The notes below the pieces were generated by a model. That model made no database searches. It was not told the DNA's origin and was given only the letters and a program-made list of their open reading frames with translations. A DNA stretch of 54,246 nucleotides from Calothrix sp. CSU_2_0 (GTDB lineage: Bacteria; Cyanobacteriota; Cyanobacteriia; Cyanobacteriales; Nostocaceae): contig JAAUPE010000036.1 of assembly GCA_012034595.1 (NCBI GenBank), positions 1 through 54,246 on the forward strand, given 5' to 3'. Numbering within the stretch: the first letter of the stretch is position 1; each line of letters begins with the position of its first letter. The position numbers were made by a program, and so were the translations under genes. This document shows positions 6,491 through 48,100 of this stretch, piece by piece.

Positions 6491-7401
6491 TTAAGAATCC
6501 GAATAAGTTTTTTCTTTGCTTAAAAAATTCCAAATGTATTGATTTACCAACGCTGGCTGCTCTTGCTGTATCCAATGGCTGCAATTGGGAATATAATGAA
6601 TTTGAAAGTCTTTAACATATTTTTCAGTCCCGTAGGTTAATTCTTTACCCAATGCTGTATCATTTTCCCCCCAAATCATCATTGTAGGAACTTCCAGCAA
6701 TCTCCAGGTTCGACTTACTGATTTAGGTTTGAAAATATTGCGGTAATAATTCACCATTGCGTTTAAAGCACCAGGTTTGGATGCTGCGTCTTTATAAGCG
6801 TCGATATTAGCTGGGGTAAAAGCACTTTTATCAACTGCCATACCTTTGATTGCGGTTTCGAGAAATTGATAATTTTTTGATTTGATGAATAATTCTGGTA
6901 GAAAAGGTAATTGAAAAAAGAATATATACCAACTACGTAGCAACTGTTGAAGTGTAAGCAATCCCGCAGCAAACTTAGCAGGATGGGGAAGATTGAGGAT
7001 AATTAGCTTTTCGAGCATCTCTGGGTATGCGTAAGCAAAAGACCATGCGATGTCGGAGACAAGCCGCTTCGCGTCTACGCACCACCCCAATCATGTCCTA
7101 CAAGTATACATTTCTTGTAACCTAAGCCGCGAATCACTCCTTCGATATCTTTGACAAACTCATCTATCACATAGGCAGATTTTTCTTGAGGTTTATCGCT
7201 ATCGTTGTAACCCCGTAAGTCTAGTGCGACTACTTTATAGTTTTTGGCAAATTCTGGAATCTGATATCGCCATGAATACCAAAATTCCGGGAATCCATGT
7301 AACATCAGGATTAAGTCGCCTTCACCTTGGGTTACGTAGTGCAGTTTGATACCATTACTAATAATATATTCGTGCTGCCAAGTGCTTTCGATAACAGACA
7401 T
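6491..7401 (-). pseudogene. Alpha/beta hydrolase (epoxide hydrolase / haloalkane dehalogenase-like), interrupted by a small repeat
   Basis: Two frames join into one alpha/beta hydrolase. The upstream part (7401 down to 7075, 108 codons) holds the oxyanion-hole HGFPEFW motif and the GHDWGG nucleophile elbow with Asp. It stops at a TAG immediately after GHDWGGA. The downstream part continues in another frame as IAWSFAYAYP and carries the cap region, the acid segment (WGENDTAL) and the terminal histidine segment (NCSHWIQQEQP). Exactly 26 extra bases (7052-7077) separate the two frames. Removing them restores both the family-typical GHDWGGAIAW and a HIP1 octamer. The gene is therefore probably non-functional, unless the downstream part is translated alone, which would lack the nucleophile. 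Confidence 0.85.
7052..7077 (-). mobile_element. 26-bp small dispersed repeat inserted in a HIP1 site
   Basis: The bases GTCGGAGACAAGCCGCTTCG and six more interrupt GCGAT|CGC. Deleting 7052-7077 recreates GCGATCGC and the open hydrolase frame, so the ends are defined to the base. Size and composition fit the very small dispersed repeats described in Nostoc genomes, which have no coding capacity. No target duplication is visible. Confidence 0.7.
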
Positions 7402-7407
7402 AATATT

Positions 7408-7437
7408 GATTTTGGATTTTGGATTTTGGATTTTGGA
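7408..7437. repeat. TTTTGGA heptamer array before the hydrolase start
   Basis: Four tandem heptamers (GATTTTG units) lie 7 bases upstream of the minus-strand start codon at 7401. They form the untranslated leader if transcription starts above them. The rest of 7438-7732 shows no supported gene. Confidence 0.65.
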
Positions 7438-7732: not shown

Positions 7733-8912
7733 ATGATGGTAAATACTGAAATACGCGGGATTTGGCTAACTACAACCGACAGCAATGTACTTTCCTCGCA
7801 AACACGAATCACGGAAGCAATGGAATTTCTCGCAGAAACTGGGTTTAATGCTGTTTTCCCTGTCGTTTGGAACAAAGCAGCAACGCAATATCCCAGTCAG
7901 GTTATGCGTCAGACATTTGGTGTGGAAATCAACCAGCAATGTATTGGACGTGATCCGTTAGCAGAAGTGGTAGAAGCAGCGCATCAAGTTGGATTGAAAG
8001 TTATACCCTGGTTTGAATACGGTTTTGCTAGTTCGTATAATTTAATGGTGGGATGTTGCTAGCGAAAAAACCTGAATGGATAGCACGGGATATTCAGGGG
8101 AATTTGCTTAAAAAGAATGGTTTTGAATGGATGAATGCACTCGATCCAGATGTGCAAGAATTTATGTCCAATTTAATATTAGAAGTTGTCCAAAATTATG
8201 ATGTAGATGGAATTCAAGGAGACGATCGCTTACCTGCATTTCCCTGTGAAGGAGGTTATGACAGGGGAACAGTAGAGCGCTATCATCGTCAATTTGGCAC
8301 AAATCCACCAGCGAATAGTAAAGATAAACAATGGCTGCAATGGCGTGCTGATATTTTAACTCAATTTTGGGAAAGACTTTATCATCAAGTTAAAGCAGTT
8401 AATCCCAATTTAATTGTTTCTATCTCTCCGAATATCCATGATTGGGCATATACAGAATATCTCCAAGATTCTCCTACTTGGTTAAAACAGGGATAGTTGA
8501 TATTATCAATCCACAGATTTATCGACGCGATTTCAATAGCTATAAACAGATTATTGATAAGTTAGTCTTGGAACAATCCACAAATTTAGCTTTGCCGAAA
8601 TTTGCTCCGGGAATTTTGATGAAATTAAGTTCGTATGTCATCAATTCTGACTATTTACTACAGGCAATTGAATATAATCGAATTCATGGTATTAAGGGAG
8701 AGGTATTCTTTTTTTATGAAGGATTGCGCGAGAATAACAATCAATTAGCAAAAGTGTTGCGAAATAATATTTACGCTAAATCTGCTAAGTTTCCGACAAT
8801 TTCAGAATTGAATCAATCTAATATTAAAAGTACTAATATTAAAAATACTAATATTAAAAATCAAAATTTATCAGTTTGGGGAAAATTACAAGAATTTTTT
8901 AAAAATCTATAA
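7733..8912 (+). pseudogene. GH10-like family glycosylhydrolase with two frameshifts
   Basis: Three overlapping frames (7733-8062, 8053-8496, 8442-8912) encode successive parts of one protein of the cyanobacterial family 10-like glycosylhydrolases (GHL10/DUF187 type). It starts with RGIWLTTTDSNVL and contains VIPWFEYGF, the conserved VDGIQGDDRLP and the INPQIYRRD barrel segments. The first break is at about 8044: one extra A in TTTAATGG would give NLNGGMLLAKKPEW. The second is at about 8493: one A after CAGGGA would give LKQGIVDIINPQ. Both are single-base losses. The protein would be about 390 residues when repaired. No signal peptide is evident. Real decay and assembly error are both possible. 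Confidence 0.8.
8820..8864 (+). repeat. 15-bp tandem repeat in the GH10-like gene tail
   Basis: Three copies of AATATTAAAARTACT-like units encode NIKST-NIKNT-NIKNQ near the C-terminus of the broken glycosidase. The period is a multiple of three, so copy changes keep the frame. Confidence 0.6.
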
Positions 8913-42231: not shown

Positions 42232-44346
42232 CTATCTTTTTAAGAAAATACCAATCCCGTTATGAACGCGGGCTGCGGTGCTAGGAGAACGGTCTATAAG
42301 TTGCCCTCCTAAGTAAAGACTCGTAGAACTTCCTCCGTCTAAATTCAGGGCATTGACGCATCCCATTTTCTGCATCAGTTGTGCATGTTCGGCGAGGGTG
42401 GGACCTGCTCCTCCGGCGCGGTTATGGGTGGATGCGATAATCACTGTGCCGTTCGCTGTGGTGCAGATGGCACTACGTATGGCTTTTTCGCGAATAAATG
42501 CGTCACTAAATTTTTCGGCTTTAGCATCGAGGACAATTTGACGATTTTGTACTAGTAAAGGTCCTGCACCAATAATGTTGGGATAGCCATTAAATTCGGC
42601 TGGTATTGTGGCGCTTTCTATCTTTAAATTTGTGCCCGTGGGAAATAAATTGGCGCTGGTGCTGATTTTTCCGCGCAATGTCAGTAAGTAACCATCAAGG
42701 GGAATTGAAACGGGGTTTTCTCCGGCTTTTCCTGCTATTAGTTGGCTGCTAACTTGATTTTTTTGAACAACTATTATTGTTTCATTATCGGTAAGTGGTG
42801 TGTAAGTATTTCCCCAAGCAGGGGTGTACCGAGCAATACCACTTTGAACGTAGCCACTATTGAGGAAGAGTATGGGGGTTTTCACTGTTCCTTGGGGTCC
42901 AGTTGTGACTAAGTTATCTTCCAGGGTAAGACGACCTACGTAAAATTGTCCAGAGTTATTCCAGGCGATCGCACCTCGATTTAAGATCGGACTCGATAGC
43001 CATTGTCCGTTGCTACGAATTGCTCCCAGAGGATATCTATTGTTACGATTGAAGTAGCCGCCGTTAATACCCGCAACTGCTAAGTATTTTGGCGCTGTTT
43101 GAATCCAAGGTGCTGTCCCAATCAGGGTATCGGCGTTTGTTACTAATGGTTTTAGCTGGACATTACGGGGATTTGCTTCCAACCAAACTACAGGAAATTT
43201 GTCTTGCCCTAATTGCATCCACTGTTGTCGCCAGCGTAACCCAGATGCCCAGGCAATATTACGGGGTACTAATGCGTCGGGGCGAATTTCCACAATTAGG
43301 TTGTTGGGTTCTGATTGAATGCGGGGTGCGAAACCGAAGGGCACACTAACGCGAATTAATGTTTGATTGTTTACTACTTCAACTTGTTTGACCGTGGCTT
43401 CGGGTGGGTTTATTGGTGTTATGGGTCTAAGTATCGGTGTTGGTACGGGTAGCTGTTTCCCTAAGTTTGGCAGTGATGGGATTACTGGGGATGTAGGTAG
43501 TGGGATTGGTGATGGTACTGACGTTGGTACTGGTGTGATGGGTGTGTAGCGTTGAACTAATCCGGGGTCAGCAATTCCATCGAGAATGATTGTCCATTCC
43601 CGGTTAGGAGGGGCTGTTGGCTGAGGATTAACGGCATCGGGGTCTACAACTCTTTTAGCTGGCAATTCTTGCCTTACTTGCCAAGGTGTGGGGCGATCGA
43701 GGTTAATGATAACTCTTTTACCTGTGGATACCTGCGCTGGGACTGATGGTTTTCCATCTGCTCCCAACAGTTGCATGGTCGATTTGTAACTAGTTTCATC
43801 AATATTGGTAATTATTGTCTGCGGAGTCGTAATGTTTAATATATTACCTTGTATTTGGATTTTCCAACCTGCTGTTTTTGCTAAATTTGTAATATCAAGA
43901 TAGCGAAAATTTCCTGCTAATTGTGCCATCAAAACTTGCGGTTTTGTATAGGAGGAAAACCACTGTATTGGTTGTTTTGTGGGAATACTGGTGTCTAATA
44001 GGTCTATACCAATTAACTGCTTCAGCGAACCATCGGCGATGTGAGTTGTGAGTTGATTTTTACTTGTTTGACGTTGGAACCACGCAGTTGAAACAATTCG
44101 ACCATTGAGAGAGATTTGATTCCCATTTGCGTAGGCACGGAGTGATTTGTCGATGGGCATCGCGGCTGGTGCGGTTGATGGTTTTACTGGTGTTGGAGTC
44201 TGGGCATTGGCTGTATAATAATTGGTTGTTAAGCATAGAAAGCTGGAAATTATCAGTGAGAATAATTTCTGGGAAGACTTGATAGTAGATTTATCGGCGA
44301 TTTTTTGACTAGATTTTTCTAAGTGTTTTTGCGGTTTTATCTTCAT
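42232..44346 (-). CDS. Phosphodiester glycosidase-like exported protein (NAGPA/DUF2233 domain)
   Basis: From the ATG at 44346, about 704 residues with a signal-like segment (LFSLIISSFLCLTTNYYTANA); longer starts to 44544 are possible. The middle is Pro/Thr-rich (residues about 260-310) and may span the wall. The C-terminal 300 residues carry the NAGPA-type domain, with GINGGYFNRNNRYPLGAI and NALNLDGGSSTSLYLGG. This domain hydrolyses sugar phosphodiesters in known members. A role in envelope or exopolysaccharide metabolism is inferred. It is monocistronic, with a CCCAATN repeat at its 3' edge. Confidence 0.8.
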   Translation of the reverse strand: MKIKPQKHLEKSSQKIADKSTIKSSQKLFSLIISSFLCLTTNYYTANAQTPTPVKPSTAPAAMPIDKSLRAYANGNQISLNGRIVSTAWFQRQTSKNQLTTHIADGSLKQLIGIDLLDTSIPTKQPIQWFSSYTKPQVLMAQLAGNFRYLDITNLAKTAGWKIQIQGNILNITTPQTIITNIDETSYKSTMQLLGADGKPSVPAQVSTGKRVIINLDRPTPWQVRQELPAKRVVDPDAVNPQPTAPPNREWTIILDGIADPGLVQRYTPITPVPTSVPSPIPLPTSPVIPSLPNLGKQLPVPTPILRPITPINPPEATVKQVEVVNNQTLIRVSVPFGFAPRIQSEPNNLIVEIRPDALVPRNIAWASGLRWRQQWMQLGQDKFPVVWLEANPRNVQLKPLVTNADTLIGTAPWIQTAPKYLAVAGINGGYFNRNNRYPLGAIRSNGQWLSSPILNRGAIAWNNSGQFYVGRLTLEDNLVTTGPQGTVKTPILFLNSGYVQSGIARYTPAWGNTYTPLTDNETIIVVQKNQVSSQLIAGKAGENPVSIPLDGYLLTLRGKISTSANLFPTGTNLKIESATIPAEFNGYPNIIGAGPLLVQNRQIVLDAKAEKFSDAFIREKAIRSAICTTANGTVIIASTHNRAGGAGPTLAEHAQLMQKMGCVNALNLDGGSSTSLYLGGQLIDRSPSTAARVHNGIGIFLKR

Positions 44347-45130
44347 TATTCGGTTACTTAGTTTGGAGAAGCTATCTGTGAAAATATAACTTGAATAATT
44401 TTCGTTAATATCAGAAAACAATGACATTACTTTTAACCAAGAACGTGATAATGTAAATATGGGTTTTTGTCTCTTGTAAGCCAAAAAGTATTTTCCTAAT
44501 CGAACAAGTGCGCTATTGGGTGTAATTAACAACAAAGAGTGCAAATCAAGTAACTGTAAGCCAAAATATTGGCGAAGGACTTGAGTAATGTTGGGAACTT
44601 AGATGTTCATTCCTCACCAGTGGTTGCTACTTAAGTGGGGTAGAACTAGTAGCAATGCAGTGACAAAGGATAATCGGTACAAATCGGTCAACAACAAAAG
44701 ATTTAGTTAGGAATTGTCAAATGGGTATGTATTGTAATACGCTGATTTTGTTGCTGAATGAGAAGATTTTCAGCTAAGAATCGAGTCAAGGCTTTGATGT
44801 GAGCTTTATTTAGGTACGTCTAATCAGATGATGCCCAAAAATTTAGTTCTATTTGGTAACAAGTCAATTGAGAAAATACATACTTTCAAGGCGTAAATAA
44901 AAACTATTTGGGCAAGTGATGTAGTTTGCCGAACTCAGCATAAACCTGAAAAAATAGCGATATGATTTTAACACGGGTAAAAATTTACAAATAAAACCCG
45001 AAGTTAGAATTTTTTTTCTCTAAATTTCCGTGTTAGCTTAATTCTCCATTGCTCTGTTTAGAAAAAAAATTTCGCAAAATTCGCAAAACAAGTCGTAAAA
45101 ATCACAGTGGGTTGGTATCAGGCATAGTGT
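44347..45130. other. Divergent promoter region of the glycosidase-like gene and glutamate synthase
   Basis: About 780 bases (about 590 if the longer upstream start is used). It should contain the promoters of both genes. I searched by eye for NtcA sites (GTA-N8-TAC) and found none that fits perfectly. No tRNA or small gene is supported. Confidence 0.4.
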
Positions 45131-48100
45131 ATGAATAATGAGTCTACAAATCAAGAGCGGAAAATGACAATTTCGGAAAATTCACATAGTTCATCCAGGT
45201 GTATGTATCAGGGGCAAAAATGGTTGGTAGAAGAACGCGATGCTTGTGGTGTGGGCTTTATTGCCCATCGTCGAAATCAAGCTAGCCATGAAATTATCGA
45301 AAAAGCTTTATCAGCTTTAACCTGTTTGGAACACCGTGGTGGTTGCAGTGCCGATCGCGATTCTGGGGATGGTGCAGGTGTTTTGACTGCGATTCCTTGG
45401 CAGTTGTTCCAACAGTCTTTACTGTTAAATAAATCACATACACTTATCGCCCAAAATATAGATTTTTCTAATAATGGTAAAAATGCAATTGGGGTACTTT
45501 TTTTACCACAAGATGCTCATTTGGCGGAGAAAATACGTAACGAATTTGAACGGGTAGCATCAGAAGAAAAATTAACTGTGCTGGGCTGGCGAGAAGTTCC
45601 GGTGAATCCCAATGTATTGGGCGTGCAGGCAAGGGAAAATCTGCCTTTGATGCAGCAAGTATTATTGGTGTCGGAAGATAAAAGCGGTGATGAGCTAGAG
45701 CGAATCTTATACTTAGTTCGCCGTCGTCTAGTGAAAGCGGTAAAAAATATTTATCCAGACTTTTACGTTGCTTCCTTGTCGAGTCGGACGATTGTTTATA
45801 AAGGCATGGTGCGATCGGCTGTGCTGGGGGATTTTTATGACGACCTCAAAAACCCAGCTTTTACTAGTGCTTTTGCGGTTTACCACCGTCGTTTTAGTAC
45901 TAACACCATGCCCAAATGGCACTTAGCCCAGCCAATGCGGCTATTGGGTCACAATGGCGAAATTAATACTTTACTGGGTAACATTAACTGGATGACAGCG
46001 CGCGAATCCAGCTTGAATCATCCAATTTGGGAAAATCGCTTCGACGAACTCAAACCATTTGTCCAAATTGATAACAGCGACTCAGCAACCTTAGATAATG
46101 TTTTTGAGGTGATGGTGCGATCGGGACGCAGCCCTTTGGAAGCCTTAGCGATTATGGTTCCGGAAGCCTATAACAACCAGCCAGAACTACGTAATTACCC
46201 TGAGATTGTAGATTTCTACGAATATTACAGTGGGATGCAGGAAGCTTGGGATGGTCCAGCATTGTTAGTATTTAGCGATGGGCAAAAAGTGGGAGCAACC
46301 CTCGATCGCAATGGCTTAAGACCTGCTCGATATTTTATCACCAAAGATGATTACATTGTTGTCGCATCGGAAGCTGGTGTAGTAGAATTCCCAGAAGAAG
46401 ATATTATTGAGAAAGGTCGCTTGGGTCCAGGAGAAATGATTGCCGTTGACCTGGAAACCTCGGAAATATTGAAGAATTGGGAAATCAAGCAGCGTATTGC
46501 CAAGCAACATCCCTACGGAGAATGGTTGCGGAAACACCGTCAAGAATTGACGTTATTGGTTAATGGTAATAGTAGTAACGGGAATGGGAATGGGAATGGG
46601 AATAGCAACGGCAACGGTAACGGTCATTTACCATCGATCGCTGGTCATGCCTTAAACGGCAAAGGACAAATAGTTAAGGACAAACAGCCAGTAAACATCG
46701 ACCGTCAAAACCTACTACGTCAACAGACAGCCTTCGGCTACAGTAGCGAAGATGTGGAAATGGTAATCCAACCGATGGCACAGGATGGTAAAGAAGCCAC
46801 ATTCTGCATGGGTGATGATATTCCCTTGGCAGTGTTATCGGAAAAACCGCACCTATTGTACGACTATTTCAAACAACGGTTCGCCCAGGTGACAAACCCA
46901 GCGATTGACCCGTTACGAGAAAGTTTAGTCATGTCGCTGAAGGTTGAACTAGGTGAAAAGGGTAATTTACTCGATCCCAAACCCGAATATGCACGACGAC
47001 TAAAGTTGGATTCACCCGTTTTACTTAACAATGAATTAACAGCGATCGCAAATTCATCGTTTAAAACCCAAGAATTATCCACCCTATTCGCAATTTCCTC
47101 CGGTCCAGATGGCTTAAAAGCTGCTGTCGAAGCATTACAAATCAAAGCCGCAGAGGCAATCCGGGCAGGGGCAGAAATTTTGGTGTTAAGTGACAGAAAT
47201 AACGCAGGTATCAGCGCGGAAAATACTTGTATTCCCCCATTACTTGCAGTTGGTGCAGTTCACCACCACCTGATTCGGCAAGGGCTGAGAACCCAGGCAT
47301 CCTTAGTCATTGATACTGCACAGTGCTGGAGTACGCACCACTTTGCTTGTTTGATTGGCTACGGGGCTGCTGCGGTTTGTCCTTATATGGCATTGGCAAC
47401 GGTTGAGGATTGGTGGGCTGACCCGAAAACCCAGCAATTTATGGAACGGGGAAAAATTGCTGCCATGAGTTTGGAGAAAGCCCAAAAGAATTACCGTAAG
47501 GCAATCGAAGCTGGTTTACTCAAGATTCTCTCAAAGATGGGTATTTCCCTGCTTTCCAGCTACCAAGCTGCCCAAATCTTTGAAGCTATTGGCATTGGTG
47601 CAGATTTATTAGAATTAGGGTTCCAAGGTACTACTTCTCGCGTTAGCGGTTTGAGTGTTCGCGAACTTGCTCAGGAAGTATTATCCTTCCACTGCAAAGC
47701 ATTCCCCGAAATCACCATCAAAAAGTTGGAAAACTTGGGCTTTGTTCAGTATCGTCCCGGTGGCGAGTACCATATGAACAGCCCCGAATTAGCGAAAGCG
47801 CTGCACAAAGCTGTTGATGGCAAGCAATACGACCATTACGAAGTTTATCAGCAACACCTGCAAAACCGACCAGTAACTGCATTACGGGATTTACTCGACT
47901 TTACTAGCGATCGCAATCCAATTCCCATCGAAGAAGTCGAATCTGTCAGCGAAATCGTCAAGCGGTTCTGTACTGGAGGGATGTCGCTAGGTGCGCTCTC
48001 GCGGGAAGCCCATGAAACCCTCGCGATCGCCATGAATCGGATTGGTGGTAAATCCAATTCTGGGGAAGGTGGGGAAGACCCAGTACGCTACAAAATTGTC

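What the first reader, a model, noticed from the sequence alone, without database searches (positions are those of the whole stretch)
7047..7080. A 26-bp dispersed repeat inserted exactly inside a HIP1 octamer breaks an alpha/beta hydrolase gene
Removing 7052-7077 restores GCGATCGC and the frame GHDWGGAIAW at once, so the insertion point is known to the base: GCGAT|CGC. Small dispersed repeats of this size are known in Nostoc, but insertion within HIP1, the most over-represented octamer in these genomes, suggests a target preference. HIP1 sites would then be landing pads for tiny mobile repeats.
Basis: partly seen in the sequence, partly recalled or inferred. Interest (0 to 1): 0.7.

Follow-up and report, generated by a model that had tools for sequence, protein, structure and literature searches.

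The report
Tiny mobile repeat lands in HIP1
A 26-letter dispersed repeat has inserted itself exactly inside a very common eight-letter cyanobacterial motif and broken an enzyme gene; its repeat family favours that motif as its landing site, which was already reported for one such repeat, though how something so small moves is still unknown.

Summary
Window 7052-7077 is a 26-bp insert in GCGAT|CGC; without it HIP1 (GCGATCGC) and the alpha/beta-hydrolase frame both return. All 84 orthologues aligned lack it; 66 of 84 have an intact HIP1 there, including a same-genus relative at 88% identity. The target preference is real. Searched by core alone, 12 of 13 own-genome copies have both HIP1 halves, as do 14 of 15 cores with at most one mismatch in 1.6 Mb of genome G008 and 24 of 31 exact cores from 30 genomes. 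Over seven own-genome insertions, 8 of 10 empty same-genus alleles are exact GCGATCGC, two are one base off. [quoted passage not shown] Added here: copy number follows HIP1 density within the family, uncorrected for phylogeny; two of four hairpin stems covary but folding energy is no better than shuffles; no link to Y1/RAYT transposases. How it moves remains open.

The parts
7047..7051 (+). left HIP1 part, GCGAT
   Evidence: GCGATCGC intact at this place in 62 of 80 plus 4 of 4 orthologues
7052..7077 (+). 26-bp dispersed repeat of the SDR5 type: GTC-loop-GAC, A, AG..loop..CT, A
7078..7080 (+). right HIP1 part, CGC
6491..7401 (-). alpha/beta hydrolase gene broken by the insert (ORFs 7075-7401 and 6491-7090 hold its two halves)
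   Evidence: Pfam Abhydrolase_1 E 9.2e-29 for the joined reading
44129..44163 (-). second, diverged copy: GCGAT | 27 nt | CGC, in frame inside an open stretch of at least 532 codons (adds 9 residues, no stop)
   Evidence: slice 43001-45300; empty GCGATCGC in same-genus genome G002, with a gapped alignment on the right side

Best explanation
This is an insertion of an SDR5-type small dispersed repeat, a non-coding mobile sequence mostly of 21-27 nt that uses HIP1 as its target. SHOWN: exact insertion at GCGAT|CGC without target duplication, on either strand; gain rather than loss at the window site; an intact HIP1 in at least one empty same-genus allele at 6 of 7 tested sites. INFERRED: an enzyme acting in trans opens HIP1 between T and C and joins in a short single strand, held as two small hairpins, which is then copied; the source of that enzyme is unknown. 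In one orientation the insert reads GCG TAG in the Ala-Ile-Ala frame of HIP1, hence a stop, which is what broke this hydrolase; in the other it reads through. I put identity and target at about 0.9, the hairpin-strand intermediate at about 0.4.
For: Own genome: 22 places of GCGATGTC-N10..30-CTACGC, 0 in the reversed control (3 of the 22 lie in a larger repeat on contig C113 with like flanks). Cores without flank condition: 12 of 13 with both HIP1 halves, 13 of 13 with GCGAT. G008, 1.6 of about 6.5 Mb: 9 of 9 exact and 5 of 6 one-mismatch 21-nt cores with both halves; 27-nt core 3 of 3 at one mismatch. 31 exact cores from 30 of the 128 genomes with a match: 24 both, 5 right only, 1 left only, 1 neither. 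Empty sites: 84 of 84 orthologues of the window site are empty, 66 have GCGATCGC. Of 8 further own copies queried, 5 gave spanning same-genus alleles, 6 of 8 alleles intact; with the window site in G001 and the second window copy in G002 8 of 10, the other two one base off. Family f1, 36 genomes with the own: copies per Mb against HIP1 per Mb, Spearman 0.68, P 4e-6; 14 genomes under 600 HIP1/Mb have 0-7 copies, 22 above have 0-66. Covariation: right stem of 27-nt forms 24 double-change cells (shuffle maximum 13, best slid register 13), left stem of 21-nt forms 13 (shuffle maximum 10, slid 0); 0 of 1000 shuffles reach either. Position in print.
Against: Two of four stems show no covariation (21-nt right: 665 of 1000 shuffles reach it; 27-nt left: 1000 of 1000, nearly invariant), and predicted DNA folding is no better than shuffles (z -0.43, -0.09, -0.69, 0.39). 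Covariation counts ignore relatedness, most 27-nt rows come from the capped list, and its pattern fixed both ends. The copy-number correlation is not corrected for phylogeny and vanishes outside the family (rho 0.03, 24 genomes; 0.28 over all 60). Diverged 21-nt cores often lack the halves (1 of 8 at two mismatches, 9 of 19 at three, 7 of 33 at four; reversed control 11 at four), and 27-nt cores give 1 of 2, 0 of 3 and 1 of 11 at two to four (control 11 at four). Three of 8 queried copies (L102, L103, L105) gave no spanning allele. The SDR5 consensus could not be read.
Confidence: 0.8

Rival explanations
1. HIP1 halves are homology arms rather than an enzyme target: a break or stalled fork inside HIP1 lets the free GCGAT end anneal to the GCGAT beside a copy elsewhere, copy through it and re-anneal at CGC (microhomology template switching). 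No dedicated enzyme is needed.
For: Donor and target share GCGAT and CGC; some forms with different right-hand modules keep the same two ends; no left-end/right-end parent pair seen in 1.6 Mb and no correlation with Y1 transposases.
Against: Eight bases of shared arm is short. Any sequence lying between HIP1 halves should then spread, whereas this family and a REP core lead the list of enriched non-HIP1 followers of GCGAT in G008; weaker enriched followers (for example 16 and 11 places at 25-28 fold) were not examined.
Confidence: 0.3
2. A REP-like element moved by a RAYT or IS200/IS605 Y1 transposase, which inserts single-stranded hairpin DNA beside a short target without duplication (mechanism recalled).
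For: No target duplication, partial hairpin covariation, and GTAG readable on one strand across the junction (GC-GTAG-AC). Own genome has 6 Y1_Tnp genes, 3 of them longer and RAYT-like by length and weak score (my reading).
Against: 0 of the 6 gene loci (about 1.5 kb each side, less at contig ends) carries a HIP1-flanked copy; the best look-alike has 5 mismatches and no HIP1 halves, others are at the level of the control. Y1 gene density and copy density do not correlate (rho -0.11 in the family, 0.02 over 60).
Confidence: 0.2
3. The 34-nt string including GCGAT and CGC is the element, inserted at arbitrary sites, so HIP1 is a coincidence of its ends.
For: The ends mostly look alike.
Against: Empty alleles hold GCGATCGC at the exact place.
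Confidence: 0.03
4. The repeat is ancestral and was precisely deleted in relatives.
For: None found.
Against: 84 of 84 orthologues over many genera are empty.
Confidence: 0.02

Closest known systems
SDR5, small dispersed repeat of Nostoc punctiforme and relatives (Elhai et al. 2008, not held; known here only through PMC4390886)
   Same: Precise insertion between bases 3 and 4 of HIP1, which on the complementary strand is GCGAT|CGC; dispersed in Nostocaceae.
   Different: Consensus could not be compared; the window copy is a 26-nt form with its own loop.
GTAG-tagged REP / REPIN with RAYT (PMC3116915 and PMC3733652; passages read)
   Same: Very short, hairpin-capable, non-autonomous, dispersed.
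   Different: No copy beside a RAYT-like gene in this genome, target is HIP1, GTAG arises only with HIP1's G. PMC3733652 itself counts Elhai's cyanobacterial repeats among families lacking conserved terminal motifs.
Nezha and other cyanobacterial MITEs (named in a PMC3733652 passage)
   Same: Non-coding and mobile.
   Different: No target duplication seen here; far shorter (MITE sizes and ends recalled).

Membership tests
[quoted passage not shown]
SDR5 | length about 21-27 nt (recalled from the 2008 paper) | tested here: met
   window insert 26 nt; own-genome inserts of 21, 24, 26 and 27 nt, with 19, 30 and 35 nt once each
SDR5 | published consensus sequence | not testable with these tools
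   Elhai 2008 not held
SDR5 | many dispersed copies in Nostocaceae, absent in orthologues | tested here: met
   pattern in 37 of 60 genomes with the own, some single matches outside the family looking like chance; exact core in 128 of 217 family genomes, reversed control 0; empty sites
GTAG REP / RAYT | GTAG tag at the foot of the hairpin | tested here: inconclusive
   GTAG present only when HIP1's G is counted
GTAG REP / RAYT | copies flank a RAYT gene | tested here: not met
   0 of 6 Y1_Tnp loci in the own genome; not examined in relatives
MITE | target-site duplication | tested here: not met
   none at the junction, nor at the empty sites compared
MITE | terminal inverted repeats | tested here: inconclusive
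   ends GCGATGTC and GTCTACGC are only partly inverted, and only with the HIP1 bases counted

The most novel reading that the evidence does not exclude
HIP1 is an enzymatically opened site in living cells, and a hairpin-forming single strand of only 21-27 nt is captured there; HIP1 load therefore sets how many such elements a genome can carry, and the element is a natural reporter of the unknown HIP1-cutting activity.
Probability: 0.3. Interest if true: 0.75.

Novelty: new member of a known kind. Interest (0 to 1): 0.42.

Why it matters
The role of HIP1 and its methyltransferases 'remains a mystery' in the words of PMC4390886, and I know of no settled mechanism for mobile DNA under 30 nt. A family whose close copies mostly sit in HIP1 ties the two questions together, and gives insertions with intact empty alleles on which cutting, methylation and hairpin models can be tested. 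In this genome such insertions cut at least three recognisable genes.

Tried and rejected
RAYT/IS200 partner: Y1_Tnp genes found but not associated. Autonomous parent with the two ends apart: no left-only/right-only pair 150-4000 bp apart on one strand in 1.6 Mb of G008, by one narrow pattern. Phage carriage of the 21-nt form: no exact 29-mer in viral contigs, one chance-like mycobacteriophage match in phages; the 26-nt form was not searched there. Plasmids do carry the family: 28 records, 27 of them cyanobacterial, and 43 records, at E up to 1 (the sets overlap). GCGATNNATCGC, 132 places in 1.6 Mb of G008, first looked like a second HIP1 insertion, but the 30 contexts that I viewed read mostly as the core of a GTAG-type hairpin repeat. 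Folding energy gave no support. The exact repeat was not found in the 80 orthologue loci: apart from own-genome places the best was 6 mismatches without HIP1 halves. Dropped before counting: a second L101 row in L160 (73.6%, likely paralogue) and own-genome rows (L151, L159, L166, L172, L178); other-genus rows of L090 (G003, G004, G005, G037 twice, G038: no insert, no HIP1) are told but not in the 8 of 10; G001 is not counted as empty because other sequence stands there. In one search, 21-nt rows more than 8 mismatches from the consensus were dropped.

Full report
What is there. Window 7047-7080 is GCGAT, 26 bp, CGC. Leaving out 7052-7077 restores GCGATCGC and a single open frame; with the insert the hydrolase reads GGA and stops, and the rest is frameshifted. 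The joined reading is an alpha/beta hydrolase (PF00561, E 9.2e-29). The junction allows no shift and shows no target duplication.

It is gained, not lost. The octamer is GCGATCGC in 62 of 80 and in 4 of 4; the 18 others differ at one or more bases. G001, of the same genus, is 87.9% identical and has the intact octamer. G002 gave no orthologue at the DNA level.

The family. The repeat has 5 places in the own genome at up to 3 mismatches, all between GCGAT and CGC. A flank-constrained pattern gives 22 places, none for the reversed control; three of them share flanks in a larger repeat on C113. A core of the 27-nt form without flank condition gives 8, of which 7 have both halves and 8 the left half. 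The two unconstrained sets do not overlap: 12 of 13 both halves. Over 60 genomes, the own included, the constrained pattern is in 37, up to 66 places (G008), with 0-4 in reversed controls; several single matches outside the family look like chance. The exact 18-nt core of the 21-nt form is in 128 of 217 family genomes with 0 in the reversed controls, reaching 92 places in G171. Named plasmids of Nostoc, Trichormus, Tolypothrix, Calothrix and others carry it. In the 80 orthologue loci (1.5 Mb) no close match to the window's own 26 bp was seen.

HIP1 as target. In 1.6 Mb of G008 the 21-nt core was searched without flanks: both halves in 9 of 9 exact, 5 of 6 at one mismatch, 1 of 8 at two, 9 of 19 at three, 7 of 33 at four, with reversed controls 0, 0, 0, 0 and 11; the 27-nt core gave 3 of 3, 1 of 2, 0 of 3 and 1 of 11 at one to four, control 11 at four. 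In 31 exact cores on loci from 30 genomes, the own included, 24 have both halves; of the other seven, six keep one half exactly and one (L300) neither. Empty alleles in the same genus: eight further own copies were queried and five gave spanning alleles: L090 intact in G001 and G002; L091 intact in G002, GCGATCTC in G001; L097 intact in both; L101 GCAATCGC in G001; L104 intact in G001. With the window site intact in G001 and the second window copy intact in G002, where the right flank aligns with gaps, that is 8 of 10 alleles and 6 of 7 sites. HIP1 occurs 6966 times in 7.44 Mb, about one per 1070 bp, so a given place would hold it by chance about once in a thousand. In five other genera the L090 gene has neither insert nor octamer, which fits the octamer coming first. 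A bias to A at -1, -2 and +1 was seen over 105 copies (uncorrected P below 0.001, 0.002, 0.002; 12 columns tested, three more below 0.05), but the background came from G008 and the window only.

HIP1 load. Within family f1 (36 genomes) places per Mb follow HIP1 per Mb, Spearman 0.68, P 4e-6; over all 60 it is 0.28, and in the 24 outside the family 0.03. No phylogenetic correction was made and genome sizes were rounded. G031, with only 31 HIP1 sites, has no place; its genus g30 has the core in 0 of 7 genomes.

Shape. Read as GCGAT..CGC the element is GTC-loop-GAC followed by a second hairpin. In 56 forms of 27 nt the second stem has 24 cells changed on both sides against a shuffle maximum of 13; pair 16-22 is G-C 35, A-T 11, C-G 5. 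In 48 forms of 21 nt the first stem has T-A 29 and C-G 13 at pair 2-8, 13 double changes against a maximum of 10. The other two stems show nothing. Predicted DNA folding is not better than shuffles, although the minimum-energy fold of the window copy's minus strand pairs the outer GCG and CGC around two hairpins. Some forms in G008 with other right-hand modules keep GCGAT and CGC.

Effect on genes. When HIP1 is read Ala-Ile-Ala, one orientation gives GCG TAG, a stop; the other stays open. In the own genome the thioesterase-like (L090) and phosphatase-like (L103) frames and the window hydrolase are cut, while L091, L097, L101 and L102 carry 21 or 27 nt in frame. L104 and the end of the Uma2-like L099 frame are cut too, L104 without a Pfam match.

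Known or new. [quoted passage not shown] HIP1 is a palindrome, so this equals GCGAT|CGC on the other strand. Elhai et al. 2008 is not held; its length range is recalled. Eight searches of the open-licence library, seen as listings with passages of five further papers, gave no other account of HIP1 insertion; whether the covariation or the HIP1-load relation is in the 2008 paper I cannot tell. The mechanism (enzyme, strand, donor) is inference.

Noticed in passing
window 44129-44163 (-): Second, diverged 27-nt copy in HIP1, in frame in an open stretch of at least 532 codons. In G001 other sequence, 27 or 31 nt by reading, starts at the same GCGA.
   Followed up: partly
window 7733-8912 (+): Three overlapping ORFs in different frames look like one gene with frameshifts.
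   Followed up: no
window about 7409-7436: Run of a GGATTTT heptamer just upstream of the hydrolase start.
   Followed up: no
L181-L260 (G008), 132 places: GCGATNNATCGC is strongly over-represented, in the contexts viewed mostly as the core of a GTAG-type hairpin repeat; 0 in 144 kb of own-genome sequence.
   Followed up: partly
L114 (own genome C239:15759-15785): Copy in the stop-giving orientation inside a 183-codon open stretch; its TAG triplet is changed, so the frame stays open.
   Followed up: no
L120, L121 (own genome): RAYT-like genes with other hairpin repeats nearby, unrelated to this family.
   Followed up: partly
G008:C1 1508139 (+) and, counted on the reverse of the 1.6 Mb, 357378: Another hairpin-like string (GTCACTGA...GAAGTGC) sits inside copies of this repeat, i.e. 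nested small repeats.
   Followed up: no
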